DNA of 64,000 nt from Gammaproteobacteria bacterium (lineage in GTDB: Bacteria; Pseudomonadota; Gammaproteobacteria; Steroidobacterales; Steroidobacteraceae), in NCBI GenBank assembly GCA_021323735.1, contig JAJPKM010000035.1:1-64000 (forward strand). The letters run 5' to 3'. Position 1 is the stretch's first letter, and each line of letters begins with the position of its first letter. Shown here piece by piece: positions 35,236 to 48,990 of this stretch. Under the pieces are notes generated by a model. It made no database searches, was not told where the DNA came from, and saw only the letters and a program-made list of their open reading frames with translations. Both the position numbers and the translations under genes were made by a program.

Positions 35236-37014
35236 ATGTGGAAGTCGCTTCAATTGGGCGCGGCGTGCGCTGCGCTGTTGATCGTCACGGCCTGTAATCA
35301 GTCGACCCCGCCGCCGCCGAAACCTGCAGGCCCATCGCCCGCGAGCGCTGCCTGGCTCAAGCTCACGAACGGCTTCATCGAAGGCTACATGATGGCCCAG
35401 CCGTTCTTTGCGGTGCAGGCCGGCCGCCATGAGTTTGACGGCCAGTTGCCTGATTTGAGCGCGCACGGACTGAAACGCGAGATTGCCCGGTTGCACGATC
35501 AGCGCGACCAAATCTCCGCCGTCGATCCGAATACCCTGCAGCCTCGGGAACGCTTCGATCGCGCCTACTTGCTCGCCGTACTCGACAGGGATCTGTTCTG
35601 GATCGAAAAGTCCGGGTTTCCCTTCAGCAATCCGGCCTGGTACTTGCCGCAACTCGATCCGGATGTCTACTTGAGCCGTAACTACGCGCCTCTGGAAGCG
35701 CGCATGAAGGCGTATATCAAGTACGCGCGCGGCATTCCCAAAGCGGCCACGGCCGTCAAGGAGAACCTCAAATCGCCTTTACCTAAACCCTATGTGGAAC
35801 TGGGTATCGCTCAATTTGGCGGGCTCGCCGATTTCTATGCGAAGAGCGTGTCCGCGGTGTTCGCATCGGTAGCGGACCCCGATCTACAGAAGCAGTTGAG
35901 CGATGCGGATGCCAATGCGGCGGCGGCTATGACCTCGCTGAAGGATTACTTGGTGGCCGAGCGCAAGAACGCCACGGACAAGTACGCTTTTGGAGCGGAT
36001 CTGTTCGCGCAGATGGTGAAACAGACCGAGCAGGTAGACTTGAGTTTGGAGCAGATAGAAGCGGCAGGACGCGCTGACCTTGACCGCAATACCGCCGCGC
36101 TCAAGGCGGAGTGCGATACCTACGCCCCGAAGGCGGCGCTGGCCCAGTGCGTCGCGAAAATGGCGGCCAACAAACCGAAAGGCGGTCCGGTCGAAGAAGC
36201 TCGCAACCAGCTCAAAATGCTCAAGGAGTTCATCGTTCAGAACAACGTGGCTTCCATCCCAAGCAACGATGAGGCCTTGGTGGCGGAAGCACCGCCTTAC
36301 AATCGAGCCAATGCCGCCTTCATCAATCCCTCCGGCCCCTATGAGAAGGGCGTGGTTTCCATCTACAACATTGCGCCGCCGGACCCGAAGTGGAGCAAGG
36401 CCGAACAGGCAGCCTACATTCCCGGCGAAGCGGCCTTGTTGTTCACGTCGGTGCATGAGGTTTGGCCGGGACATTTCCTGCAATTCCTGCACACCAATGC
36501 CAATCCCGACAAGCTCGAGGGGTTATGGGTGGGTTACGCCTTCGCCGAGGGGTGGGCCCATTATTGCGAAGAGATGATGGTCGAAATGGGTTTAGGCAAG
36601 GGCGATGCGGAAAAACATATCGGGCAGATCAGCGAGGCGCTGCTGCGCGATGTGCGATTGCTGTCCGCCATCGGGCTACATACGCACGGCATGACCGTCG
36701 CTCAATCCGAGAAAATGTTCCGCGAACAAGCCTTCCAAGACCCGGGCAATGCGCGCCAACAAGCAGCGCGCGGCACGTACGATCCGGCGTACCTGAACTA
36801 CACGCTGGGCAAACTGATGATCCGCAAGTTGCGGTCGGACTGGCTGGCGAAGGGTGCGGCGGCGGGTGCGAGCGCCGGTGCCGGTGCCGGTGCGGGCACA
36901 ACGGACATGGCACGTTGGCATGAATTCCATGACAAGTTCCTGTCGTACGGTGGCCCGCCGATTCCGCTGCTACGCAAGGAATTGCTGGGAGAGGGCGGCG
37001 GCAGCCTGCTGTAG
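35236..37014 (+). CDS. DUF885-family lipoprotein, putative metallopeptidase
   Basis: A 592-residue protein with a lipoprotein signal (AACAALLIVTAC; lipobox VTAC). The DUF885 core shows the metal motif HEVWPGHFLQF (His407 and His413) and the downstream EGWAHYCEEMM Glu/His segment, the expected gluzincin-like ligand pattern. AGGGGG precedes the ATG. Family members are membrane-anchored peptidases of uncertain substrate, common in TonB-rich proteobacteria. Near the C-terminus is a short Gly/Ala repeat (AAAGASAGAGAGAG), probably a flexible insertion. Confidence 0.88.
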   Translation: MWKSLQLGAACAALLIVTACNQSTPPPPKPAGPSPASAAWLKLTNGFIEGYMMAQPFFAVQAGRHEFDGQLPDLSAHGLKREIARLHDQRDQISAVDPNTLQPRERFDRAYLLAVLDRDLFWIEKSGFPFSNPAWYLPQLDPDVYLSRNYAPLEARMKAYIKYARGIPKAATAVKENLKSPLPKPYVELGIAQFGGLADFYAKSVSAVFASVADPDLQKQLSDADANAAAAMTSLKDYLVAERKNATDKYAFGADLFAQMVKQTEQVDLSLEQIEAAGRADLDRNTAALKAECDTYAPKAALAQCVAKMAANKPKGGPVEEARNQLKMLKEFIVQNNVASIPSNDEALVAEAPPYNRANAAFINPSGPYEKGVVSIYNIAPPDPKWSKAEQAAYIPGEAALLFTSVHEVWPGHFLQFLHTNANPDKLEGLWVGYAFAEGWAHYCEEMMVEMGLGKGDAEKHIGQISEALLRDVRLLSAIGLHTHGMTVAQSEKMFREQAFQDPGNARQQAARGTYDPAYLNYTLGKLMIRKLRSDWLAKGAAAGASAGAGAGAGTTDMARWHEFHDKFLSYGGPPIPLLRKELLGEGGGSLL

Positions 37015-37107: not shown

Positions 37108-37917
37108 TCAGGCGGAAGGTTCGCTGATGCCGACGAGAAGGCCGCTGTCCGCCCAGGTCCCCAAAAGACCGGCGGCGGCGGCGGGGATTTCATCCGGCGG
37201 AAGCCACGCGCTCAAGTCCTCGCAAATCTCGCCGAAATTGCGGCCGCGCAGGGCGGCATCGAGCGCTGCCGCCTCCACGTCGGTCATGGAACGGAAGTAG
37301 TTCTGCAGATTCTGACGCCACAGCAGCCACGCCACCGGTGCTTCGCCAAGTTCCGGCCGCGGCGGCGTCTCATCGCGGCTCATCGCCTTCCAAACGGCGG
37401 CGGTGTTCCAACTGAAGGTTAGCCGGCGCAATGAAGGGTGAAATGCGAAGGTCAGCGTGCTCCACTGTGCCGGATCCACGGCGGCCAGCGCCGTGCGGTC
37501 CAAGGCGTCCGCATCCTTGGCGTCGAACACTTCCGACAGGGTCCATTCCAGTAGGGCCACTTCCGAGAGGATGGGCGCCTCATCATACGGCGGGCAGCCC
37601 GCCATGAAAACATTCAAGTCGCGGCCGTACCAGCGAATCGAGCGAAACACCGAGGGGTGCCCCGCCACGTAGGCCTCGCCTAAGTTGAGCCAGGCCTCGT
37701 CGCCGAGCAGGCCATGAAGGACGGGGTAGGTGTCGTGCAGCGCGTCGATGAGTCGCACCTGGTAGGCATTGCGGTAAATGGCCAGGCGATCCGCGGCGGC
37801 CAGCGGTGGCGCATCCACGATGGCGGCGGTGACCGCACTGTCTTCACCCAGGAGATGGCGCTGCATGTCCTGCTGCAGCGCGCGCAGCTCGAGGGCGGGC
37901 GACGCAGCCGCAGTCAC
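37108..37917 (-). CDS. bufC: BufC-like DUF2063 DNA-binding-type partner protein
   Basis: A 269-residue protein beginning at a GTG that overlaps the stop of the MNIO gene by 4 bases. The N-terminal DUF2063 domain has LRALQQDMQRHLL, RLAIYRNAYQVRLIDALHDTYPVLHGLLG and AYVAGHPSVFRSIRWYG. The C-terminal part is a second helical/beta domain. Proteins of this type are the RiPP-recognition partners of MNIO (DUF692) enzymes in bufferin operons. It would deliver the precursor peptide to the enzyme in the cytosol. Last gene of the three-gene operon. Confidence 0.85.
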   Translation of the reverse strand: MTAAASPALELRALQQDMQRHLLGEDSAVTAAIVDAPPLAAADRLAIYRNAYQVRLIDALHDTYPVLHGLLGDEAWLNLGEAYVAGHPSVFRSIRWYGRDLNVFMAGCPPYDEAPILSEVALLEWTLSEVFDAKDADALDRTALAAVDPAQWSTLTFAFHPSLRRLTFSWNTAAVWKAMSRDETPPRPELGEAPVAWLLWRQNLQNYFRSMTDVEAAALDAALRGRNFGEICEDLSAWLPPDEIPAAAAGLLGTWADSGLLVGISEPSA

Positions 37918-38744
37918 GCGGCTTCCACGGCGTGGCGGCCGGCGATGTCGCGTGCCATGTCCAATTCCGCCACCAACTCGCCAAGTTCGGGAATGTTGTC
38001 GTCGCGTTCGATCATGGTCGGCACCTCGCCGAACAGAGCAACGGCTCGAGAATACAGATCCCATACCGGAGCCACGATGGGATGGTCGTGAGTATCGATC
38101 AAGTGGCCGCCCATGTCGCTGTGTCCGGCCAGATGAAACTGGCGCACGCGCGATGTCGGCATGGCCTGCAGGTACTGCAGGGGATCGAAACCGTGATTGA
38201 CGCTGCTGACATAGATGTTGTTGATGTCGAGCAGGATGTTGCAGTCCGCGCGTGCCGCGACCTCGCGCAAAAATTCCCACTCGCTCATTTCGTCGGCGTG
38301 AAAGCTTAAGTAGCTCGATACATTTTCCAGCAGGATCTGTCTTCCCAAGGCATCCTGCACTTGCCCTACGCGCTCGACCACGCAGTCCAAAGCCGCCTCG
38401 GTGTAGGGCAGCGGCAGCAGATCGTGCAGATTGCGTCCGTCGACTCCCGTCCAGCACAGATGATCGGAAATCCAATGCGGTTCGATGCGCGCGGCCAGCG
38501 CCCTAACCCCCGCCAAATACTCGAAGTCGATGGGATCGGTGCTGCCGATCGAGAGCGACACCCCGTGCATCACCAGGGGGAAGCGTTCGCGGATGCGTTC
38601 CAGGTAGTGCAGCGGCTTGCCGCCGGGACTCAAGTAATTTTCGGTGATGACTTCGAGCCAATCGATGGCGTGAGGCTCGCTCAAAATGGCCTCATAGTGG
38701 GGGGTTCGCAGACCGAGACCGAAGCCGGAGAGTTTATTCATCAA
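37914..38744 (-). CDS. bufB: BufB-like MNIO enzyme (DUF692), bufferin maturase
   Basis: A 276-residue protein of the multinuclear non-heme iron oxidase family. Signatures: GFGLGLRTPHYEAIL, WLEVITENYL, LVMHGVSLSIGS, ISDHLCWTG, LLENVSSYLSF, NILLDINNIYVSS and FHLAGHSDMGG. The conserved His, Asp, Asn and Glu residues of these motifs bind the iron ions in a TIM barrel. In described bufferin systems the enzyme converts Cys residues of the precursor to thiooxazoles that chelate copper. Genes before and after it match that system exactly. Confidence 0.92.
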   Translation of the reverse strand: MMNKLSGFGLGLRTPHYEAILSEPHAIDWLEVITENYLSPGGKPLHYLERIRERFPLVMHGVSLSIGSTDPIDFEYLAGVRALAARIEPHWISDHLCWTGVDGRNLHDLLPLPYTEAALDCVVERVGQVQDALGRQILLENVSSYLSFHADEMSEWEFLREVAARADCNILLDINNIYVSSVNHGFDPLQYLQAMPTSRVRQFHLAGHSDMGGHLIDTHDHPIVAPVWDLYSRAVALFGEVPTMIERDDNIPELGELVAELDMARDIAGRHAVEAA

Positions 38745-38771
38745 AGGATCAATTCATCGATGCATCAAGAT

Positions 38772-38802
38772 GAGGCCGGACCCAATGGCCCGGCCTCTTT
38801 TC
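38772..38802. terminator. Hairpin between bufA and bufB
   Basis: GAGGCCGG pairs with CCGGCCTC around a 10-base loop. The T-run lies on the plus strand, so it can terminate plus-strand transcription. On the buf transcript the hairpin lacks U-residues after it. There it more likely protects the upstream bufA message or lowers read-through into bufB. Confidence 0.65.
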
Positions 38803-38807
38803 AAGCC

Positions 38808-39065
38808 TTAGCTCTTCTTGGCTTTGGCCTGCGCGTCGTCGCAAGCTGCCTTGGTCATGGACACGAAGCCCTGGCCCTTGCAGCTGTTCATGCCCTTGCA
38901 GCTGTTCTTCGCAGATTTGCACTCGGAAGTTCCCTTGCAGGAGTTCACGCCCGTGCACTTGACCGTGGCGGCATCCGCGGCGAAGGCAGTGGTGGTGATT
39001 CCCGAGGTGAACAGCATGGCGGCAGCGGCAGCCATGGCGGCGGTCGACAGTTTATTGATCTGCAT
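38808..39065 (-). CDS. bufA: BufA2-type bufferin precursor (copper-binding RiPP)
   Basis: An 85-residue exported precursor. It has a Sec signal ending near TTTAFA (residue 29), then a mature peptide with six Cys at positions 37, 43, 49, 56, 62 and 75. The repeated pattern VNSCKG, SECK, NSCKG, MNSCKGQGFVSM matches the BufA2 class of periplasmic bufferin-type metallophores. GAGGAA lies 9 bases before the ATG. First gene of the operon with the MNIO enzyme and DUF2063 partner. Modified bufferins sequester copper in the periplasm. Confidence 0.88.
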   Translation of the reverse strand: MQINKLSTAAMAAAAAMLFTSGITTTAFAADAATVKCTGVNSCKGTSECKSAKNSCKGMNSCKGQGFVSMTKAACDDAQAKAKKS

Positions 39066-39509: not shown

Positions 39510-41408
39510 GTGAAGCTCGGCCGGAATGAGCTTTGCTCCTGCGGAAGCGGCAAAAAGTACAAGCGCTGCTGCGGGCAGGAACTCGCGGCCGCTCGTCTGG
39601 ATCGAAGCGCAGCGCCCCGGCAGACGGCCGGCGCCAGTGCCGGCCAGAGCGAGATTCAGAACAATCTGGGTAATGCGCATTTGGCACGAGGTCGGTTCGA
39701 CGAAGCGATGGCGTGCTATCGGCTGGCCCTCAAGATCAGTCCCGACGATGCCAGGACGCATGTCAATCTGGGCAACGTCCTCGGACACATAGGCAGGATG
39801 CAAGAGTCGATTGCCAGCAGCCGCCGGGCAATCGCGCTCGATCCTGCGCGGTGTGAAGCCCACAACAATCTTGGCCTCGCGCTCGCCGCCGTGGGGCAGG
39901 CAGAAGAGGCAGTGGCGAGCTATAGGCGGGCACTGGCGCTCAACGCCAACTACGTGGACGCACTCAATAATCTGGGCAATACGCTGCTCGATCTGGGCGA
40001 GCTTCGCGAAGCCGCCTACGTCTACGATCGAGCCGTGCGGCTCGACCCTCAGCGCGCCAGAAGTCACCGCAATTTGGGGAATGCACTGTTCCATTTGCGC
40101 TGGCTCGATGAAGCCGCGGCCAGTTACCGCCGGGCACTGGCGATCAACCCCGGCGAGCATGCGGCACACTTGGCTCTCGGCATGGTGCTGCGCCTGCAAG
40201 GACAGGCGGCCGAGGCGGAGGCCTGCTGCCGCGCTGCCTTGGCGCTCGAGCCGAATTCCGCGGAAGCACTGGCGTTTTTGGCGGACCTGTATGCGGACAA
40301 AGGCCAGTTCCGGGAAGCGCAGGAATCGTCGCAGCGGGCGATCGAGATCGATCCGGATCTTCCAAACGCCTGGGCCGGCATCGCCAGCCATCGCAAAATG
40401 ACGGATGCTGACCATGCGTGGCTCAAAGGTACTCAGGCCTTGGTTGCAAAGCGGCTGCCGCTCCGGCACACCATCAGTCTGTACTATGCGCTGGGCAAGT
40501 ACTTCGACGACACCAGGCAGTACGACGAGGCTTTCGCCAATTATAGGCAGGCCAACGAGCTGACCAAACGCTACGGATTGCGCTATGAGGCCGCGGCGCA
40601 TACCCAACGCGTGAACCGGATAATCGCCGGTTTTGACGCCGAATCGGTGCACCGCCTGCAGGCACGATCGCATTCGTCGGATCGTCCGGTATTCATCGTG
40701 GGCATGCCGCGCTCCGGCACTTCATTGACGGAGCAAATCCTCGCCTCGCATCCCGCCGTCTTCGGTGCCGGAGAGCTGACTTATTGGGGTAGGGCATTTA
40801 CCGCCTTTGAGACGGCGGGGCTGACCAGCGAGGCCGCCGCTGATCTCATCCCGGGCTTCACCGCCGCCTATCTCGACCGCTTGGCAGCGCTATCCAACGC
40901 TGCGCTCAGGGTGGTGGACAAGATGCCGGAAAACTTCCTGAACGCCGGGTTGATTCATGCGGCATTTCCACGCGCCCGAATCATCCACATGCGGCGCCAC
41001 CCGATCGATACCTGTTTGTCGATTTACTTCCAGTATCTGATGATAAATACCCACGCCTATTCGAACGACTTTACCGACTTGGCGCATTACTACGGCGAAT
41101 ACCAGCGGCTCATGGACCATTGGCGCGCCACGATTCCCGCAGAGGCGCTGCTGGAGATTCCCTATGAAGGTCTGATCGAGGATCAAGAGGGCTGGAGCCG
41201 GCGGATGGTGGAATTTGTGGGTCTCCCGTGGGATCCGCAGTGTCTCGATTTTCATAAGACCGAGCGTGTGGTTGCCACCAACAGCAACTGGCAAGTCCGG
41301 CAAAAGATCCATGCGGCATCCGCCGGACGCTTCAGAAACTACGAGAAATACGTAGAACCGCTGCAACGCCTGATGGACAATCCCAGCGTCGACGCTGGGG
41401 GCATATAA
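39510..41408 (+). CDS. SEC-C / TPR / sulfotransferase protein
   Basis: A 632-residue protein starting at GTG with GAGG upstream. Residues 8-21 (LCSCGSGKKYKRCC) are a complete SEC-C zinc motif (C9, C11, C20, C21). About eight TPR repeats follow (residues 45-320; for example NNLGNAHLARGRFDEAMACY). The C-terminal domain is a sulfotransferase with the PAPS-binding loop GMPRSGTSLTEQIL near residue 397 and MRRHPIDTCLSIYFQ. TPR-sulfotransferases modify proteins, often on tyrosine. The TPR array should bind the substrate and SEC-C may dock to the ribosome or Sec apparatus (inference). First of four tightly spaced genes. Confidence 0.88.
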   Translation: MKLGRNELCSCGSGKKYKRCCGQELAAARLDRSAAPRQTAGASAGQSEIQNNLGNAHLARGRFDEAMACYRLALKISPDDARTHVNLGNVLGHIGRMQESIASSRRAIALDPARCEAHNNLGLALAAVGQAEEAVASYRRALALNANYVDALNNLGNTLLDLGELREAAYVYDRAVRLDPQRARSHRNLGNALFHLRWLDEAAASYRRALAINPGEHAAHLALGMVLRLQGQAAEAEACCRAALALEPNSAEALAFLADLYADKGQFREAQESSQRAIEIDPDLPNAWAGIASHRKMTDADHAWLKGTQALVAKRLPLRHTISLYYALGKYFDDTRQYDEAFANYRQANELTKRYGLRYEAAAHTQRVNRIIAGFDAESVHRLQARSHSSDRPVFIVGMPRSGTSLTEQILASHPAVFGAGELTYWGRAFTAFETAGLTSEAAADLIPGFTAAYLDRLAALSNAALRVVDKMPENFLNAGLIHAAFPRARIIHMRRHPIDTCLSIYFQYLMINTHAYSNDFTDLAHYYGEYQRLMDHWRATIPAEALLEIPYEGLIEDQEGWSRRMVEFVGLPWDPQCLDFHKTERVVATNSNWQVRQKIHAASAGRFRNYEKYVEPLQRLMDNPSVDAGGI

Positions 41409-42205
41409 TGACGCATGCGGGCAAAGCAATGAGTAACACCACGAATGTAGACTTCAAACTGGAGGTGCCGCCACCGCCGCCGCCGCCCGTGGAATTGGCG
41501 CCGGAAATGCCGATCGCGGTGGCCTCGCAGGTTTACGCCAGGGTTGGACGCGTGCACATCCCCATGGTGTTTCGCCAGAATGTGGCCGACAGTATTTTCC
41601 AGAGGTTGCTCAACGCGGTGCCGTGGCGCCTGTCGTTCAACGAAGCCGGCGAGCACAGGGAAATACTCGGTGAGAACATCAAGCGTATGGGCGAAGACGC
41701 CTATCGGGAATTCCTCGAGGTGGTGGCGCGCCGCGGCCGCAGCGGTTTCCAGTACATATATCGCAGCTATCCGCTTTACGATCAATTCACCACGGCGCGC
41801 GCCGGCGGTGAGCCCTACTTGATGCAATTGATCGAATTCTTGAATTCAGGTGTGTTTCTCGCGGCGATGCGCCGGGTGACGGGAGATGATTCGATCGAGA
41901 TCGTGGACGCGAACGCAACGCTGTATGAGCCGGGGCACTTCCTGACCCGCCACGACGACGACATCGTGGGGAAAAATCGGGTGGCGGCCTATGTGTTGAA
42001 TCTAACCCCGCTGTGGTTGAGCGATTGGGGCGGGATTCTGACTTTCCACGACAAGGATGGCCATGTCTCGGAGGGCTACGTTCCCACATTCAATGCGCTG
42101 AACGTATTTCGAGTTCCGCAAATGCATGCCGTCTCGTATGTGTCGCCGCTTGCGGGTGCCGGCCGCTATAGCATCGCCGGGTGGCTGCGCCGCCGCGCCG
42201 CTTGA
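41408..42205 (+). CDS. 2OG-Fe(II) oxygenase (prolyl-hydroxylase-like)
   Basis: A 265-residue protein whose ATG overlaps the previous stop by one base. After a Pro-rich N-terminus (seven consecutive Pro) the double-stranded beta-helix contains the iron ligands H182 and D184 (TRHDDD) and H240 (QMHAVSYV). R253 (GRYSIAGW) is placed to bind 2-oxoglutarate. All four residues expected for catalysis are present. The layout matches prolyl 4-hydroxylase/Ofd-type enzymes, which hydroxylate protein side chains. Together with its neighbours it suggests post-translational tailoring. Confidence 0.85.
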   Translation: MTHAGKAMSNTTNVDFKLEVPPPPPPPVELAPEMPIAVASQVYARVGRVHIPMVFRQNVADSIFQRLLNAVPWRLSFNEAGEHREILGENIKRMGEDAYREFLEVVARRGRSGFQYIYRSYPLYDQFTTARAGGEPYLMQLIEFLNSGVFLAAMRRVTGDDSIEIVDANATLYEPGHFLTRHDDDIVGKNRVAAYVLNLTPLWLSDWGGILTFHDKDGHVSEGYVPTFNALNVFRVPQMHAVSYVSPLAGAGRYSIAGWLRRRAA

Positions 42206-42227
42206 TCCAGCCGAGCGACCCCCCCCA

Positions 42228-42884
42228 ATGGTACCCGCCAAGCTGCAGCTTCAGTCCTGGTTCGCAAGCCCCGTCGTGCTGACCCAGCATCCTGATCCGG
42301 CACGCATGAATGCTGAATTGGAAGCGCTGTTTCTGATGCGGGAGACGGATGAATTTCGCAACAAATTCGCCTCGCACATACCGCAGGCTGAACTCTTCGA
42401 AAGCGCGTTCAGCGTATTCAAATGGACTGAGCGCTGCGTGCTCGAGCTGCGGTCATTCATGCTCGACAACGTGGGCGCCGCGGTTGCGCATCTCAATGGC
42501 TACAAGCCTGAGGAAATGACCAAGCTGACGCTGGAAAATCACACCTGGTTTCACGTCATGCGCCACGGGGCTTCATTTGCGGCACACAATCATCCCAATG
42601 CCTCTTGGTCGGCCGTGTATTGCGTCCGCGCCGGGGAGCAGGTGCCCGGGCGTCCCGATAGCGGAGCACTGCGGTTTCTGGACCATCGGCCGGGATCCAA
42701 TGCCTTTCTTGACGCCGGCAATTCCAGTCTGCGCCGCGAGTTTGGCTTCGGCCACCAAGTGCTCAATCTCGTGGCGGGGCAACTGGTCATTTTCCCCGCC
42801 TATCTGGTGCATGAGGTAGCCACTTTTCTGGGCAAGGATCACCGGATTACGGTGGCCGCAAATTGTTGGTTCACCTCGAAATAG
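42228..42884 (+). CDS. Putative 2OG-Fe(II) oxygenase, TIGR02466 type
   Basis: A 218-residue protein. The ATG at 42228 is used; no strong ribosome site is present. The family-typical segment FAAHNHPNASWSAVYCVRAG (H120, H122) gives the proximal ligands, LVIFPAYLVHEV gives the distal His (H195), and HRITVAANCWF gives R206 for 2-oxoglutarate. This is the small PF13759/TIGR02466 group, whose members are almost all uncharacterised. Second of two different oxygenases in the cluster. Confidence 0.8.
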   Translation: MVPAKLQLQSWFASPVVLTQHPDPARMNAELEALFLMRETDEFRNKFASHIPQAELFESAFSVFKWTERCVLELRSFMLDNVGAAVAHLNGYKPEEMTKLTLENHTWFHVMRHGASFAAHNHPNASWSAVYCVRAGEQVPGRPDSGALRFLDHRPGSNAFLDAGNSSLRREFGFGHQVLNLVAGQLVIFPAYLVHEVATFLGKDHRITVAANCWFTSK

Positions 42885-42898
42885 CGGAACGATAAAAC

Positions 42899-44209
42899 AT
42901 GTCAGGCAGCACCCAGGACTTCACTCAGCCCGCAGCATCCCCACACCCGGGCACCGAGCCCTTGCTGCGCCAGGCCATTGAACTCAACCGTGCGGGCCGC
43001 TGGGAGGAATCGTGTCGTGTGTGGGAGCAAATACTGGCGCTCGATCCCGACCACGCGGACGCGCTCTACCATCTCGGCCACCGCTTACTGCAAGTCGGCA
43101 AGACGGCGGAGGCGAAGTCATATTTCGAGCGCGCTCTGCTGCGCGCGGCCGGGGCTCCGCTGGTGCACTTTGCTCTGGCCCAAGCCGCCAACAAACTCGG
43201 CAATGCCGACGACGAATTGGCGGCGATCAACCGCGTGCTCAGCCTCGATCCCTACTTCACCAACGCCTTGCTTGCCAAGGGCGCCTTCTACGAAAAGCAG
43301 GGAAAATTTCGCATGGCGGGGGCCAATTACCGCAACGCCTTGAAAACCCTGCGCCCGGGAACGGAAATTCATCCCCAGCTGCGCGCCACCATTGAACATG
43401 CGGCCAGAGTCGTCGATGACCAGCGGCGCGCCCTGGATGTTTATCTGAGCGGGGCCGTGCGCGAGATTCGCGATGCATCCGTCCCTTCGGAGCTGGAACG
43501 CTATGACGAATGTCAGGCGGTCTTTACCGGACTCAAAACCGCCTATGTCCAAAATCCGCTGCTGCTGCACTTTCCACGCCTGCCGGTGATGCAATTCTAC
43601 GATCGCGCTTTGTTTCCGTGGATCGAGAAATTCGAGTCGCATACCACGGCGGTTCGTAAGGAGTTGCAGGACGCGATGCGGACCCAGGATCTGGGGTGGG
43701 CGCCCTATATCGATCATCCCGACGGCGCGCCTTTGAATCAGTGGAGCGAACTGCAGCGCTCGAGCCGCTGGAGCTCGCTGTTCCTGTGGAAGGACGGACG
43801 GCCGATCGAGGAGGCTCTGGCGAAGTTCCCTGCGGCCGCGGCCGCATTGGCGGAGGTTCCCTTGAACGCCATACCAGGCAGGGGGCCGACGGTATTTTTC
43901 TCATCCCTTGCACCCAAGACCAAGATCCCGCCGCACACCGGCTCGACCAATGCAAGGCTGGTGCTGCACCTGCCGCTGATGGTGCCCGGCGGCTGCGCTC
44001 TGCGGGTCGGCAACGACACGCGTGAGTTCGCGGAGGGCAGGGCATGGGTGTTCGACGACACCATCGAGCACGAGGCGTGGAATGACAGCGACGCCCAGAG
44101 AATCGTGCTGTTGATGGACATCTGGAATCCCTTCCTCACGCAGACCGAGCGCGATCTGGTCGGCGCCCTGATGAGCGCGAACGAGCGCTACTACGCCGAA
44201 GAGCAGTAA
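42899..44209 (+). CDS. TPR - aspartyl/asparaginyl beta-hydroxylase
   Basis: A 436-residue protein with about three TPR repeats in residues 20-150, then an AspH-type cupin domain. Iron ligands are H346 (IPPHTGSTN) and H391 (TIEHEAWN); R401 in QRIVLLMDIW should bind 2-oxoglutarate. H357 in VLHLPL is the conserved family His. The TPR part probably selects a protein or peptide substrate. It ends the four-gene run and converges on the TonB receptor gene. Confidence 0.88.
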   Translation: MSGSTQDFTQPAASPHPGTEPLLRQAIELNRAGRWEESCRVWEQILALDPDHADALYHLGHRLLQVGKTAEAKSYFERALLRAAGAPLVHFALAQAANKLGNADDELAAINRVLSLDPYFTNALLAKGAFYEKQGKFRMAGANYRNALKTLRPGTEIHPQLRATIEHAARVVDDQRRALDVYLSGAVREIRDASVPSELERYDECQAVFTGLKTAYVQNPLLLHFPRLPVMQFYDRALFPWIEKFESHTTAVRKELQDAMRTQDLGWAPYIDHPDGAPLNQWSELQRSSRWSSLFLWKDGRPIEEALAKFPAAAAALAEVPLNAIPGRGPTVFFSSLAPKTKIPPHTGSTNARLVLHLPLMVPGGCALRVGNDTREFAEGRAWVFDDTIEHEAWNDSDAQRIVLLMDIWNPFLTQTERDLVGALMSANERYYAEEQ

Positions 44210-44341: not shown

Positions 44342-47300
44342 TTAGAACTTATACGACAAGTTGACGAAGAACCGTCGACCCAGCGTATCGAAGCTCGAAG
44401 GATCGGTGTTCGCCTGAACGCCTGCCTGAATGTCAGTCGTGTAGATCGGCGGCTGCTTGTTGAACAAGTTCTCGACGCCGCCCACGATGTTGAGCGTCTT
44501 GGCGTAGTTGTAGCCCAGCGACAAGCGATGGACGACGTAGGACGGAGTACGCGGCGCCGCCGTGTCGTTTGCCGAGGTGCCATCGTTGTTAATGGCGATC
44601 ATGTGACTGATGAAGCGCGACTGCCAGCCCACCGTGAAGTCATGGACGTTGTAGTAGATCTGCGCGATACCCTTCACCTTGGGTTCGGCGCCTTGCAGCG
44701 TGCCCCCCAGCACATCGGTGATCGTGCCTCTGGTGTCGATGAAGGTACCGCCCTGCAGCTGCTGGAACTCTGATTCCATCAAGTACGTGAACAGCAGGTT
44801 CATGGTCAATTTCCCAGACCCGTCGGGCAGACCGAGGGAGGTCATGGGAACACCATAGTCAAGTTCCCAATCGATACCGGCTGTCTTCGCCGATCCGAGG
44901 TTGACCGTCGGATCGAAGATGTTGGTCACGTCGCCGGCGTTGTTACGCTGCACCAGCTGGCAATGCGGGTTGTTCGGGTCGAAGCCCGGATTCGCGTTGT
45001 TCTGGTCGAAGCAGAGTCCAAGAGTCGTGTTCGCGCCAACCGTGCCGATCTCGTTGTTGATCTGGTAGTGCCAGTAATCCAACGAGGTGGTCAGCTGCTG
45101 ATCGCCGGCAAACACCGAATTGAACACCACACCGAACGTGTAGCTGTTGGAGCTCTCGGGCTTCACATTCACATTGCCCGACGGGGTCGATTGCACCTGA
45201 ACGTTCGGTATCGCGTAAGCCTGGCCGGCGGTGTAATCAACCGCAGGGACGCCTTGCTTGATACACAGGGCCTGGACCTGAGCGGGAATGGGCCCATTGC
45301 TGTTGTCGCAGGGGTCGGCGTAGCCGGGCGAGTTGCTCGACGGAGGCGCGAACAAGTCCACCAGGGTGGGGGCGCGCACCGCGTGCGCGAACGACGCACG
45401 GAAGCCCACGTCATTGATCGGTTTATAGTTCAGCGTTCCGCCGTAGGTGCTGACCTTGCCGCCGATATCGTAATCCGAGTACCGGTACGACAGATCCGCG
45501 TCCAATCGCTTCACGCCCGGCAAATCGGCCAGGATGGGCACCGCTAATTCCGTGAAGTATTCCTTCACCACGTTCTGGCCCTCAACCGGCGGCACAGGAC
45601 CGCTCGGAATGCCGAAGGCGTCGCCGATCTGCTGATCGTGGTCGGGTACGGACGAGAAGGTGTTCCTGCGGTAATCCGCACCGAACAACAGGGTGACCGG
45701 CGAGGTGCCGCCCAGCTTGAACAAGTCACCCTGGATGGTGCCTTCCCAATTGGACTGCGTCGTGATCTGCGTGGTGAAGTTGTTCTCACCCACCGCCGCC
45801 GCGCAGGCCGGCGTGATCGAGCCGATGCCGAATATGCTGAAGTTGGACTGGTTACAACTGCCCACGCCCTTGTTGGTGCCGCTCAGAATTCCCTGGAAGG
45901 CGCTGATCGAGATATCGCCGTTGATCTGCACCGGTTCGCTGCCATGGCCAAAGCTGCCAAACACGTTCCAGTCGACCTTATGATCGGCAACTTCGAAATT
46001 GCCCTTGACGCCGGCCAGCAATTGGTAGACGTCGTTGCTGTTGATATCCTGGCGACCGCCCAGTTCAATGGTGCGGCGGGATATGGCAAAGTCCGCCGTC
46101 GGATCGGGTCGCGATGCCAAGAGCGCCGCCAATGGGGCCGGAATCGTCGGGCTATTGTACGGAATGTTGAAGGTGAACGGGACCACCAGGCCGTTGACGA
46201 CCTGCGAATAGGTCGACGCCGGCGTTGGCGCAAGCAGCTGATCCGAGGTATAGCTCGTAAAGTAGACTTGCTCGTAGACTTCGATGTTGTCGTTCGGGTC
46301 GTAGTGCCCTTCTTGGAAAATCTGCTTGCGAGTTTCGGGCAGTTGCAAGTAGTTGAGAGCGCCGAAATTGAACTTGACCGGGATGCCGCCGTAGCCCGGC
46401 TGGTTAGGAACCAAACCGATTTGATTGCCGCTGGCCTTTGCAGGCCGACAGAACAGCGTGCCGCCGGGATTGAAGCCGATGGCTGAGTTGGTCGCGCAGG
46501 AGCCCGGTGGCGATCCCGGGAATGCCGCGTCAAAAGCCGCCTGCGTGGGTCGGTTATTTGCCAGAGCTTGAGGAAGGCCCGTGTCTGTGCCGCCGAACCA
46601 GTTGGTTTCGCGGCCGCCCGGCAGGGTGCTCGAACCGGAGATGCTCAAATTGGGCCCGAGGGTATGTGCCGAGAATGGACGGGCGCCTTGGAACACCGCA
46701 TCGCGGTTATCGTACGACAGGGTTATCACCGAATTGCCCTTGCCGTCGGCGAAATTGCTGCCCAGGGTCAAGCTGGCGTCGCGCGTTTTGCCGTCGCTGT
46801 GCTGCGCATCCCAGCCGTAGCCGATATCCGCCTGCACGCCCTCGAAATTACGCTTCATGACGATGTTGACCACACCGGCCACGGCGTCGGAACCGTACGC
46901 GGCTGACGCGCCGCCCGATAGAATGTCAATACGTTCGATCAGCGCCGGCGGAATGGTATTCAAGTCCACCACGCCGCTGGAGTCCTGGGGCATGGCGCGC
47001 CGACCGTCGACCAGCACCAGGGTTCGCGTTGCGCCGAGTCCGCGCAGGTTGAGGTTGGCGAAGCCCTGATTGGCCGGATTGTTCGAGCTCGTCGTCACGT
47101 CCGGCGTGAGCTGCGGCAGCGCGTTCAGCTTGTTATCCAGCGAGACTGCGCCTGAATTAAAGAGGAAATCCGCGTTGACGCTGACTGTCGGCGCCGAGGC
47201 CTCGAAATCCGGCTTGACGATGCGCGTTCCAGTCACCACCACTTCTTCCAACGAAGTATTGGCGATATTGGTAGCACCGGTAGGTTGGACGTTTTGCACC

Positions 47301-47395
47301 GTTTGGGCGTGCGAAATGCCCGCCCCCACGCCCGACACTGCACCCGCGGCGAGTGCCAGACGTATAGCATGGGTCAAAGTACGATTAGTTCCCAT
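44342..47395 (-). CDS. TonB-dependent outer-membrane receptor
   Basis: A 1017-residue receptor with a signal peptide (ending ISHAQ) and a TonB box-like segment EEVVVTGTRI. The plug domain has LVLVDGRRAMP, IERIDILSGGASAAYGSDAVAGVVNIV. A long 22-strand barrel ends in RFFVNLSYKF, with the terminal aromatic residue. AAAGGAGC precedes the ATG. The large size and plug motifs match receptors of TonB-rich bacteria that import peptides, glycans or siderophores. Its 3' end faces the hydroxylase/sulfotransferase run, so shared function is possible but not shown. Confidence 0.95.
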   Translation of the reverse strand: MGTNRTLTHAIRLALAAGAVSGVGAGISHAQTVQNVQPTGATNIANTSLEEVVVTGTRIVKPDFEASAPTVSVNADFLFNSGAVSLDNKLNALPQLTPDVTTSSNNPANQGFANLNLRGLGATRTLVLVDGRRAMPQDSSGVVDLNTIPPALIERIDILSGGASAAYGSDAVAGVVNIVMKRNFEGVQADIGYGWDAQHSDGKTRDASLTLGSNFADGKGNSVITLSYDNRDAVFQGARPFSAHTLGPNLSISGSSTLPGGRETNWFGGTDTGLPQALANNRPTQAAFDAAFPGSPPGSCATNSAIGFNPGGTLFCRPAKASGNQIGLVPNQPGYGGIPVKFNFGALNYLQLPETRKQIFQEGHYDPNDNIEVYEQVYFTSYTSDQLLAPTPASTYSQVVNGLVVPFTFNIPYNSPTIPAPLAALLASRPDPTADFAISRRTIELGGRQDINSNDVYQLLAGVKGNFEVADHKVDWNVFGSFGHGSEPVQINGDISISAFQGILSGTNKGVGSCNQSNFSIFGIGSITPACAAAVGENNFTTQITTQSNWEGTIQGDLFKLGGTSPVTLLFGADYRRNTFSSVPDHDQQIGDAFGIPSGPVPPVEGQNVVKEYFTELAVPILADLPGVKRLDADLSYRYSDYDIGGKVSTYGGTLNYKPINDVGFRASFAHAVRAPTLVDLFAPPSSNSPGYADPCDNSNGPIPAQVQALCIKQGVPAVDYTAGQAYAIPNVQVQSTPSGNVNVKPESSNSYTFGVVFNSVFAGDQQLTTSLDYWHYQINNEIGTVGANTTLGLCFDQNNANPGFDPNNPHCQLVQRNNAGDVTNIFDPTVNLGSAKTAGIDWELDYGVPMTSLGLPDGSGKLTMNLLFTYLMESEFQQLQGGTFIDTRGTITDVLGGTLQGAEPKVKGIAQIYYNVHDFTVGWQSRFISHMIAINNDGTSANDTAAPRTPSYVVHRLSLGYNYAKTLNIVGGVENLFNKQPPIYTTDIQAGVQANTDPSSFDTLGRRFFVNLSYKF

Positions 47396-47702: not shown

Positions 47703-48482
47703 CTAAGGGTTGCCGCGGAGGCGAATCTCGAACAGTTTCGGCCAGTTCTTCCCCGTGACGAACAGGCGATCGCCCTTGGCATCGTAGGCAATGCCGTTGA
47801 GCACATCCGTTTGTCCAGGCACGATATCCGCGCGCTTCAATAAGCCGGAGAGATCGATGATGCCGATCACCTGACCGTTGGCCGGGTCGATGCGCAGGAC
47901 CCAATCGGTTTGCCACACATTGGCGTAGATCTCTCCCTTGACCCATTCCAATTCGTTCACATTGGAAATGGGCTTCCCCTCGATGGTGACTTGAATGCGG
48001 TGAGTCTCCTTCAGGGTCTTGGGATCCAGGAAGCGAAGTTCCGAAGTGCCGTCACTCATGATGATCGCGGAATCGTCGCGAGTCAGCGCCCAGCCTTCTC
48101 CCGGGTAATGAAACTGGCGCTGCACCTTGAATGTGGCGAGGTCATAGACGAAACCGAGATGAGATTTCCAGGTCAGGCTGATGAGCTGCCCATGCCAGTT
48201 CACGATGCCTTCGCCGAAGTACTGCGCCGGAATATCGAGCTTCTGCAGGACCTCGCCTGTTTCAAGGCGGACCTTGCGGATCGAAGAGTGCTCCTCCAGC
48301 CCGGTGCTTTCGTATAGAAAGCCGTTCAAATAAAACAGCCCCTCGGTAAAGGCCGTCGCGTCATGCGGATAGGTATGCACGATCTCGTAGCCATATCTTG
48401 GTACGGCCGCCTGAGCGTCCATGCACACCATTGCCAATAGCCCGATGATGAGCGGTGACTGAGTCGCAAAAGTCGGTATCAT
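47703..48482 (-). CDS. Secreted glutaminyl-peptide cyclotransferase
   Basis: A 259-residue beta-propeller enzyme. The ATG at 48482 has GGAAGA upstream and gives a signal peptide (SPLIIGLLAMVCMDAQA); an ATG at 48491 is an alternative. Family motifs include HDATAFTEGLFYLNGFLYESTGLEEHSSIR, split across blades, YFGEGIVNWHGQLISLTWK and NVNELEWVKGEIYANVWQTD. The enzyme converts N-terminal Gln of peptides or proteins to pyroglutamate in the periplasm. It lies upstream of the TonB receptor on the same strand and is divergent from the LEA-type lipoprotein. Confidence 0.9.
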   Translation of the reverse strand: MIPTFATQSPLIIGLLAMVCMDAQAAVPRYGYEIVHTYPHDATAFTEGLFYLNGFLYESTGLEEHSSIRKVRLETGEVLQKLDIPAQYFGEGIVNWHGQLISLTWKSHLGFVYDLATFKVQRQFHYPGEGWALTRDDSAIIMSDGTSELRFLDPKTLKETHRIQVTIEGKPISNVNELEWVKGEIYANVWQTDWVLRIDPANGQVIGIIDLSGLLKRADIVPGQTDVLNGIAYDAKGDRLFVTGKNWPKLFEIRLRGNP

Positions 48483-48489
48483 TTCTTCC

Positions 48490-48990
48490 ATGGTGCCACG
48501 GCTGCCGAGTAATTTGTTGCGCCTCGCGGGCGCATTGTCCTTGAGTCTGAGCCTCGCCCTAGGCGCCTGCTCCTTGGTCGGGCCAAAGTTCACGCGGCCG
48601 AACGTCTCCGTCATCCAAGTCGAGATGCGCGGCGGTAATCTGCTGCAGCAGACTTTTGCCGTGAAGCTCAATATTCAAAATCCAAATAGCCGGGCCTTGC
48701 CGGTTCGCGGGCTGCATGCGGAATTGACGGTGGGCGGGGAGCGGATCGCCAGCGGTGTCAGCGACCGCGCCATCATTGTTCCTGCCTTCGGCGAATCCGA
48801 ATTCGACATGACCATTACCGCCAACCTCGCCCTGGCGCTGCTCGAATTGACCGACAAGGCCAATCAGCATGGCGACTCGATCGACTACGAACTGATCGGG
48901 GCGGCCAGCATCGACCTGCCGTTCCTGCGCGACCTGCCCTTCAGGCAGAGCGGCACCTTCAAGTTGAGAGGTGCCCAGGGCTCGCAGTAA
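48490..48990 (+). CDS. LEA type 2 / WHy-domain lipoprotein
   Basis: A 166-residue protein with lipoprotein signal (SLSLSLALGAC; lipobox LGAC). The WHy domain follows: VIQVEMRGGNLLQQTFAVKLNIQNPNSRALPVRG, split over strands, then FDMTITANLALALLEL. The NPN motif in a beta-sandwich is typical of LEA14-like desiccation proteins. The start codon at 48490 overlaps the complementary upstream ATG of the cyclotransferase gene, so the two promoters must lie inside each other's coding region or share very little space. Confidence 0.8.
   Translation: MVPRLPSNLLRLAGALSLSLSLALGACSLVGPKFTRPNVSVIQVEMRGGNLLQQTFAVKLNIQNPNSRALPVRGLHAELTVGGERIASGVSDRAIIVPAFGESEFDMTITANLALALLELTDKANQHGDSIDYELIGAASIDLPFLRDLPFRQSGTFKLRGAQGSQ

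What the first reader, a model, noticed from the sequence alone, without database searches (positions are those of the whole stretch)
39510..44209. Four-gene run: SEC-C/TPR sulfotransferase plus three 2OG-Fe(II) hydroxylases facing a TonB receptor
Seen: four same-strand genes spaced 1 base overlapping, 22 and 14 bases apart. They encode a TPR-sulfotransferase with a complete SEC-C motif, two different 2OG-Fe(II) oxygenases (H182/D184/H240; H120/H122/H195) and a TPR-AspH hydroxylase (H346/H391). Known: each family modifies protein or peptide side chains, and TPR domains bind polypeptides. Inference: the cluster builds a hydroxylated and sulfated polypeptide, with the convergent TonB receptor as target or importer. 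No precursor peptide was recognised. Co-occurrence of three separate oxygenases with a sulfotransferase is not a pathway I can name.
Basis: partly seen in the sequence, partly recalled or inferred. Interest (0 to 1): 0.7.

Follow-up and report, generated by a model that had tools for sequence, protein, structure and literature searches.

The report
Receptor-linked protein hydroxylase and sulfotransferase island
A bacterial gene group places enzymes that look like protein hydroxylases and a protein-tyrosine sulfotransferase beside an outer-membrane uptake receptor, the pairing recurs in other proteobacteria, and it may chemically decorate that receptor or a peptide that the receptor handles, which has not been tested at the bench.

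Summary
The four genes and the convergent receptor are real and correctly described. The grouping is not chance. Of 22 order loci with a close TPR-AspH, 19 carry a TonB-dependent receptor (TBDR) and 19 a TPR-sulfotransferase within 10 kb; of 18 distant-AspH loci, 2 and 0. Seen from the receptor, 15 of 16 best core-TBDR hits have a sulfotransferase nearby, six of them without AspH. Nearest solved relatives of three enzymes modify proteins: human AspH, protein-tyrosine sulfotransferase, OGFOD1. The enzymes lack export signals. In six two-module loci true AspH-TBDR pairing beats all 63 swaps. The window is a divergent member: SEC-C sulfotransferase, TBDR outside the core clade. Best guess: cytoplasmic enzymes modify the receptor precursor before export (0.36); a peptide ligand is a close rival (0.32), since oligopeptide permeases and peptidases flank some relatives. 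The substrate is not shown. Ten searches of an open library found no description.

The parts
39510..41408 (+). SEC-C - TPR - sulfotransferase (Sulfotransfer_3, protein-tyrosine-sulfotransferase-like)
   Evidence: PF13469 2.6e-45, SEC-C 32.3 bits, TPRs; 8w5z 1.2e-8; 7 of 9 hits are protein-tyrosine sulfotransferases; profile, first 7 of 21; no hydrophobic N-terminus
41408..42205 (+). 2OG-Fe(II) oxygenase, prolyl-hydroxylase-like (OGFOD1 relative)
   Evidence: PF13661 5e-20, PF13640 8.4e-15; OGFOD1 4nhx 6.2e-6; HxD...H seen
42228..42884 (+). 2OG-FeII_Oxy_5 (PF13759) putative oxygenase, substrate unknown
   Evidence: 58.3 bits, cut-off 27; TIGR02466 below cut-off; 3bvc, uncharacterised, 0.0012; one other hit at 0.34
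42899..44209 (+). TPR - aspartyl/asparaginyl beta-hydroxylase
   Evidence: PF05118 1.3e-40; H346, H391, R401 invariant among 15 aligned; human AspH, oxygenase + TPR
44342..47395 (-). TonB-dependent receptor, convergent; not a member of the core module clade
   Evidence: plug and barrel; tree (sister to L075); (413.5 bits to the core profile; the 16 best hits have 1112-1412)
37111..39065 (-). neighbouring bufferin RiPP operon: BufA2 (39065-38808), BufB (38744-37914), BufC-like; probably separate
   Evidence: NF050166 91.2 bits, cut-off 60; NF050167 390.9, cut-off 310; HvfC model 40.3, below cut-off 142; PF05114, PF09836

Best explanation
The cluster is one version of a recurrent protein-modification island attached to an outer-membrane receptor. 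Shown: the gene content, its conserved linkage, the protein-modifying relatives of three enzymes, and the lack of export signals. Inferred: the enzymes work in the cytoplasm on an unfolded secretory polypeptide, most likely the precursor of the co-encoded TBDR, held by their TPR arrays. AspH hydroxylates Asp/Asn, the OGFOD1-like and PF13759 oxygenases hydroxylate other side chains (Pro likely for the former), and the sulfotransferase adds sulfate, probably to Tyr, from PAPS. The decorated receptor is then exported by Sec and inserted, with altered loops or plug that change ligand or metal binding. In this window the SEC-C domain, which in SecA binds SecB, may bring the sulfotransferase to Sec-bound precursor.
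For: Linkage from the AspH side: TBDR 19/22 and sulfotransferase 19/22; 14/14 and 12/14 where at least 6 kb flanks AspH on both sides; 18 distant-AspH loci 2 and 0. From the receptor side: 15 of 16 hits above 1100 bits have a sulfotransferase within 10 kb, six of them with no AspH nearby. Controls: 20 regions around the best-scoring sulfotransferases away from AspH, 2 with a TBDR-model hit; 18 regions around TBDRs away from AspH, 2 with a sulfotransferase. AspH and TBDR distances correlate over 70 pairs (r 0.53, highest of 1000 permutations 0.20); true within-locus pairing ranks first of 64. AspH-sulfotransferase fusion proteins exist (L050 by Pfam; cluster of three). Several sulfotransferase lineages sit at such loci (tree). 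The whole set recurs in Sphingomonas solaris L139. Protein-type relatives. No signal peptides. SecA metal-binding domain binds SecB: PMC8076867, passages.
Against: No modification was observed. No candidate target residue is universal in linked TBDRs; the core clade has an [YR]-D-[YF]-S-x-C loop that the window TBDR lacks. Of 53 named loci with at least 6 kb on both sides of AspH, 19 have no TBDR and 27 no sulfotransferase; 24 of all 80 have neither, eight of them Brevundimonas. One core TBDR (G109:C53) has neither partner, and six have a sulfotransferase but no AspH. The window TBDR groups with unlinked TBDRs. Oligopeptide ABC permeases and peptidases flank some relatives, which favours a peptide substrate. 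NCBIfam's best match for the AspH protein is the lipid hydroxylase OlsC, far below cut-off (90.4 of 450 bits). Joint inheritance of neighbours could give the pairing result without any enzyme-substrate relation, and L042 and L151 among the six loci are close relatives.
Confidence: 0.36

Rival explanations
1. The enzymes tailor or process a peptide or protein that passes through the TBDR, either made by the cell and exported or taken up from outside; the receptor is the gate and not the substrate.
For: TBDRs import peptides and siderophores (established knowledge). OppB- or OppC-like permease genes lie near AspH in 7 of 81 loci (clusters CL19 and CL33; one member of each by Pfam), S49 peptidase in 14 of 81, prolyl oligopeptidase in 4, aspartyl protease in 6 (one member of each by Pfam). 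A table in PMC10040529 (passages) lists lasso B2, sulfotransferase and aspartyl beta-hydroxylase under near-consecutive cluster numbers. A short secreted protein (CL3sec) recurs in 8 of 22 and 33 of 80 loci. The window has a DUF885 protein upstream.
Against: The seven permease loci share other neighbours too and may be one inherited setting. No convincing precursor ORF in the three window spacers scanned; no CL3sec match in this genome; no lasso B2 gene on an AspH contig in 17 genomes. Not every recurrent neighbour was annotated.
Confidence: 0.32
2. The enzymes modify another cell component (lipid, surface polysaccharide, or general proteins such as translation factors); the link to the TBDR reflects shared regulation, for example by iron.
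For: 2OG oxygenases need Fe(II) (established knowledge). AspH-fold lipid hydroxylases OlsC and LpxO are weak matches. piuC, an iron-dependent oxygenase gene, is adjacent to the receptor gene piuA (PMC11878004, passages); a PKHD-type enzyme occurs in relative loci.
Against: TPR + oxygenase architecture as in human AspH; the sulfotransferase profile is closest to protein-tyrosine sulfotransferases; AspH and the neighbouring TBDR are co-inherited pair by pair.
Confidence: 0.21
3. Chance neighbourhood of unrelated genes.
For: Gene order and orientation vary; the window's sulfotransferase belongs to a SEC-C subfamily whose other SEC-C members lie away from AspH and TBDRs.
Against: Expected by density (about 59 Mb; my arithmetic) roughly 0.8 sulfotransferases and 4 TBDRs near 22 AspH genes; observed 19 and 19. 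The sister locus L075 has AspH convergent to a TBDR, with OG2 twice.
Confidence: 0.04

Closest known systems
PiuA-PiuC and Fiu-YbiX (TBDR beside a PKHD-type 2OG-Fe(II) hydroxylase)
   Same: A 2OG-Fe(II) oxygenase encoded beside a TBDR; PKHD-type enzymes occur at several relative loci.
   Different: The window has no PKHD enzyme but an AspH, an OGFOD1-like and a PF13759 oxygenase, plus a sulfotransferase. Fiu-YbiX is recalled; PiuA-PiuC adjacency is from passages of PMC11878004.
Human AspH (EGF-domain hydroxylase of the secretory pathway)
   Same: TPR + oxygenase domains; two histidines and an arginine at matching spacing.
   Different: Bacterial, no export signal or anchor seen; substrate unknown; domain orientation of the model differs.
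Protein-tyrosine sulfotransferases TPST1/TPST2
   Same: Closest solved sulfotransferases by single sequence and by profile.
   Different: Fused to TPRs and SEC-C and without signal anchor; acceptor residue not known.
RaxST-RaxX of Xanthomonas
   Same: Bacterial sulfotransferase linked to a sulfated polypeptide (recalled; PMC4216712 seen as a search listing).
   Different: No precursor peptide recognised here; the conserved partner is a TBDR.

Membership tests
Aspartyl/asparaginyl beta-hydroxylase (AspH) | PF05118 domain with two iron-binding histidines and a 2OG-binding arginine | tested here: met
   PF05118 139.2 bits, cut-off 22.6; H346, H391, R401 invariant in 15 sequences; human H679, H725, R735 appear in PDB titles; their roles are recalled
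Aspartyl/asparaginyl beta-hydroxylase (AspH) | TPR domain N-terminal to the oxygenase | tested here: met
   Foldseek aligns the model to AspH oxygenase+TPR entries over 441-467 columns, TM about 0.43 (domain orientation differs); oxygenase alone 0.83 of 5apa
Aspartyl/asparaginyl beta-hydroxylase (AspH) | hydroxylates Asp/Asn in a protein | not testable with these tools
   needs biochemistry
Protein-tyrosine sulfotransferase | PRSGT (PAPS-binding) motif and a conserved acidic residue after it | tested here: met
   VGMPRSGTSL...GAGELT; E36 invariant in 12 sequences and aligned with the acidic pair of 8w5z; functional roles recalled
Protein-tyrosine sulfotransferase | membrane-anchored in a secretory compartment | tested here: not met
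   no hydrophobic N-terminus
TIGR02466 | score above NCBIfam cut-off | tested here: not met
   52.9 against 62.5
OGFOD1-type prolyl hydroxylase | HxD...H triad and sequence similarity | tested here: inconclusive
   H182/D184/H240 present; phmmer 6.2e-6 to OGFOD1; no NCBIfam hit
RiPP biosynthetic cluster | precursor peptide within the cluster | tested here: not met
   no convincing small ORF in three spacers; lasso B2 not on AspH contigs; the adjacent bufferin precursor has its own divergent operon
Bufferin operon (neighbour) | BufA precursor and MNIO BufB above cut-off | tested here: met
   BufA2 91.2 over 60; BufB 390.9 over 310
Core TBDR subfamily of the modules described here | TBDR in the 42-tip core clade | tested here: not met
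   window TBDR lies outside it and scores 413.5 bits, though it adjoins AspH and sulfotransferase

The most novel reading that the evidence does not exclude
Proteobacteria run a dedicated secretory-protein modification line: cytoplasmic AspH-, prolyl-hydroxylase- and tyrosine-sulfotransferase-like enzymes, brought to Sec clients by TPR and sometimes SEC-C domains, hydroxylate and sulfate particular outer-membrane receptors, each receptor paired with its own enzymes. This would be a bacterial counterpart of the animal ER/Golgi hydroxylation and tyrosine-sulfation steps.
Probability: 0.3. Interest if true: 0.88.

Novelty: new variant of a known kind. Interest (0 to 1): 0.63.

Why it matters
If the receptor is the substrate, some outer-membrane proteins carry hydroxylated and sulfated residues, a decoration I know of in no TBDR (recall, plus the searches named in the report), and ligand predictions for them would have to consider it. 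If the substrate is an imported or exported peptide instead, the enzyme-receptor pairing gives a handle on the ligands of a large set of orphan TBDRs. AspH with TBDR occurs in named isolates (for example Sphingomonas solaris L139, Lysobacter sp. L118, Arenimonas metalli L107, Peristeroidobacter agariperforans L087), so it can be tested with standard mass spectrometry.

Tried and rejected
Chance neighbourhood: rejected by density and by two-sided linkage. Lasso peptide: PF13471 matched in 7 of 17 genomes but never on an AspH contig. Bufferin as precursor for the cluster: BufB within 10 kb in 2 of 22 and 1 of 80 loci; no baseline was measured, so a weak link is not excluded. CL3sec as universal substrate: no match in this genome (an empty answer there is weak); its model (mean pLDDT 77) had no PDB match better than E 0.022; only a sub-cut-off VasI match in Pfam. 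One target residue in all linked TBDRs: none found; positions specific to the core clade are not shared by the window, apart from one tyrosine, Y637. SEC-C as a general Sec-targeting device of these clusters: rejected, it marks one sulfotransferase subfamily (WIN, L182, L183, L184, L186). TBDR clade strictly tied to AspH: rejected; TBDR with sulfotransferase occurs without AspH. Plasmid-borne island: 1 of 45 plasmid records with a match covers at least 80% of AspH; not followed. Labels cluster on the trees (TBDR 11 changes, fewest in 500 shuffles 15; sulfotransferase 10 against 19), but the samples were anchored on AspH, so I rely more.
Full report
WHAT IS THERE. Four genes lie on the + strand at 39510-44209 with 1 base overlap, then 22 and 14 bases between them, facing a TonB-dependent receptor (TBDR) on the - strand at 47395-44342. 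Pfam gives TPR repeats, SEC-C and Sulfotransfer_3 for gene 1; 2OG-FeII_Oxy_4/3 for gene 2 (OG2 below); 2OG-FeII_Oxy_5 (PF13759, OG5) for gene 3; TPR plus Asp_Arg_Hydrox for gene 4 (AspH); plug and barrel for the receptor. Gene 3 misses the TIGR02466 cut-off. None of the four enzymes has a hydrophobic N-terminus, while the receptor does. So enzymes and receptor would meet only in the cytoplasm, before export (inference).

Directly divergent, at 39065-37111 (-), lies a bufferin operon: BufA2 precursor and BufB maturase above NCBIfam cut-offs, and a BufC-like protein by PF09836. BufB is within 10 kb of AspH in 2 of 22 order loci (the window and L039) and in 1 of 80 named loci (L094). I treat it as a separate known system, without a measured baseline.

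IS THE GROUPING REAL? A search of 147 genomes of the order with the AspH protein gave matches in 39 (60 match rows). I fetched 39 regions; rows left out were fragments, TPR-only matches, rows inside a fetched region, and two distant relatives. With profiles built from the loci, 22 loci with a close AspH (window, L033-L052, L068) show TBDR 19, sulfotransferase 19, both 17, neither 1; where AspH has at least 6 kb on both sides, TBDR 14 of 14 and sulfotransferase 12 of 14. The 18 distant-AspH loci give TBDR 2, sulfotransferase 0. By density in 17 genomes (96 sulfotransferase matches; 515 first-look TBDR candidates; about 59 Mb) I expect roughly 0.8 and 4 in 22 loci (my arithmetic). The profiles were trained on these loci, but a plain tblastn with the window's proteins gives TBDR in 18 and sulfotransferase in 18 of the 21 loci other than the window.

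NAMED HOSTS. TBDR lies within 10 kb in 52 of 80, sulfotransferase in 37, both in 33, neither in 24; with at least 6 kb on both sides, 34 and 26 of 53. Against a strict rule, eight Brevundimonas loci have AspH with neither partner. The full window set (OG5, AspH, TBDR, sulfotransferase, OG2) recurs in Sphingomonas solaris L139, in another order. The nearest receptor on the tree is that of L075, a Steroidobacteraceae bacterium, which also has AspH convergent to the TBDR, two OG2 genes and two weak sulfotransferase matches (37 and 107 bits).

CONTROLS AND THE VIEW FROM THE RECEPTOR. Of 20 regions around sulfotransferases chosen away from AspH, 2 have a TBDR-model hit (50 and 317 bits). Of all 18 regions around the TBDRs that lie away from AspH, 2 have a sulfotransferase. 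Next I searched 32 genomes, 17 with and 15 without an AspH match, with a profile of core-module TBDRs. Of 16 hits above 1100 bits, 15 have a sulfotransferase within 10 kb and 9 an AspH; of the 9 hits at 600-1100 bits, 3 and 1; of 29 lower hits that I tabulated, 8 and 10 (54 of 76 rows used). Six of the 15 lie in five genomes without an AspH match (one of the window's own genus). One search scored only 11 candidates per genome, so absence from the whole genome is not certain, but no AspH was found in the fetched regions. Those five regions carry CL3sec in 5, PF13759 above 100 bits in 4, and a PKHD-type oxygenase in 3. So receptor plus sulfotransferase plus oxygenases is the stable association, and AspH is a frequent, not obligatory, member. 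Caveat: 6 of the 16 contributed to the profile; the six without AspH did not.

CO-INHERITANCE. For 70 AspH-TBDR nearest pairs, distance matrices correlate with r 0.53 (largest of 1000 permutations 0.20). Six loci hold two modules; exchanging partners within a locus lowers r in 6 of 6, and the true pairing ranks first of 64. Two of the six, L042 and L151, are close relatives. This fits cognate pairs; joint inheritance of neighbours would give the same.

WHAT THE ENZYMES RESEMBLE. AspH: in the profile search TPR-only proteins score highest, and the oxygenase domain matches human AspH among the 60 sequences shown (6.8e-52). A confident model (pLDDT 91) has human AspH as its first 11 Foldseek matches, best 2e-18, with different domain orientation. 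Sulfotransferase: the profile's first 7 of 21 PDB sequences are protein-tyrosine sulfotransferases, best 4.7e-23. OG2: OGFOD1, 6.2e-6, and 4iw3 at 8e-4 (listed as putative uncharacterized; I recall a Pseudomonas prolyl hydroxylase). OG5: an uncharacterised structure at 0.0012. Elsewhere AspH and sulfotransferase occur as one protein (L050; cluster of three loci), PF13759 occurs fused to TPRs (L034), and a PKHD-type Fe(II) dioxygenase joins (L111 member). Animals use AspH and tyrosylprotein sulfotransferases on secretory proteins (established knowledge).

WHAT IS SPECIAL IN THE WINDOW. Its sulfotransferase belongs to a SEC-C subfamily: 5 of 122 frames (WIN, L182, L183, L184, L186) have CxCx8C[CH] and fall in one six-member clade. 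The four others lie away from TBDR and AspH; the sixth member, at the AspH-TBDR locus L100, is cut at the contig start. SecA's metal-binding domain, of the same type, binds SecB, and such domains in YecA and YchJ are proposed Sec accessories (PMC8076867, passages). The window's TBDR lies outside the core clade and lacks that clade's [YR]-D-[YF]-S-x-C...C-G-G-S loop. So the window is a divergent member that may have gathered its parts separately.

A RESULT THAT FAVOURS THE PEPTIDE RIVAL. Among the recurrent neighbours in the 81 loci, OppB- or OppC-like permease clusters occur in 7 loci, S49 peptidase in 14, aspartyl protease in 6 and prolyl oligopeptidase in 4 (one member of each checked by Pfam; loci). 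The seven permease loci also share other genes, so this may be one inherited setting. It still means that a peptide taken up through the TBDR is a serious alternative.

MECHANISM. I think most likely (0.36) that the enzymes modify the receptor precursor in the cytoplasm. Shown: linkage, families, absence of export signals. Inferred: substrate, residues, order of steps, effect on uptake. Rivals: a peptide ligand or product (0.32), another target with shared regulation (0.21), chance (0.04).

LITERATURE. Ten full-text searches of the open library listed no paper that appeared, from titles, abstracts and the passages read, to describe a TBDR-AspH-sulfotransferase cluster; subscription papers are not covered. 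PMC10040529 (passages) lists lasso B2, sulfotransferase and AspH protein clusters under near-consecutive numbers in a halotolerance table; physical adjacency is not stated in what I saw. PMC11878004 (passages) says that piuC, an iron-dependent oxygenase gene, is adjacent to piuA.

Noticed in passing
window 37111-39065 (-): Bufferin operon BufA2-BufB-BufC-like directly divergent from the cluster; a BufB match also lies near AspH clusters in L039 and L094.
   Followed up: partly
L048, L050, L052: AspH-sulfotransferase fusion proteins next to TPR-AspH (Pfam checked on L050 only).
   Followed up: partly
L034:11984-13816: TPR protein fused to a PF13759 oxygenase, in the same kind of locus.
   Followed up: no
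CL3sec, e.g. L096:11227-11820, L123:7385-7891: Short secreted-looking protein with two conserved cysteines and a beta-rich C-terminal half recurs beside AspH (8 of 22 and 33 of 80 loci); no family above cut-off.
   Followed up: partly
core TBDRs, reference L036 receptor residues 238-276: Conserved loop [YR]-D-[YF]-S-x-C...C-G-G-S with near-invariant Asp beside an often aromatic residue and two cysteines; a candidate modification site.
   Followed up: partly
L102, L113, L122, L133, L138, L140, L146, L150: Brevundimonas TPR-AspH without TBDR or sulfotransferase, mostly near ribosomal protein L7/L12 and/or nusG genes (Pfam on one member each).
   Followed up: partly
L182, L183, L184, L186: SEC-C - TPR - sulfotransferases outside any receptor cluster; in L182, L183 and L184 in tandem with a second sulfotransferase.
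   Followed up: no
L042:4116-7070 (G091:C5): Receptor gene interrupted by one in-frame TAG beside AspH and sulfotransferase genes.
   Followed up: no
L105, L110, L117, L130, L136, L145, L149: OppB- or OppC-like oligopeptide permease genes near AspH and TBDR; S49 (SppA-type) peptidase in 14 of 81 loci.
   Followed up: partly
window 35236-37014 and 47703-48533: DUF885 protein and secreted-looking glutamine cyclotransferase flank the two operons.
   Followed up: no
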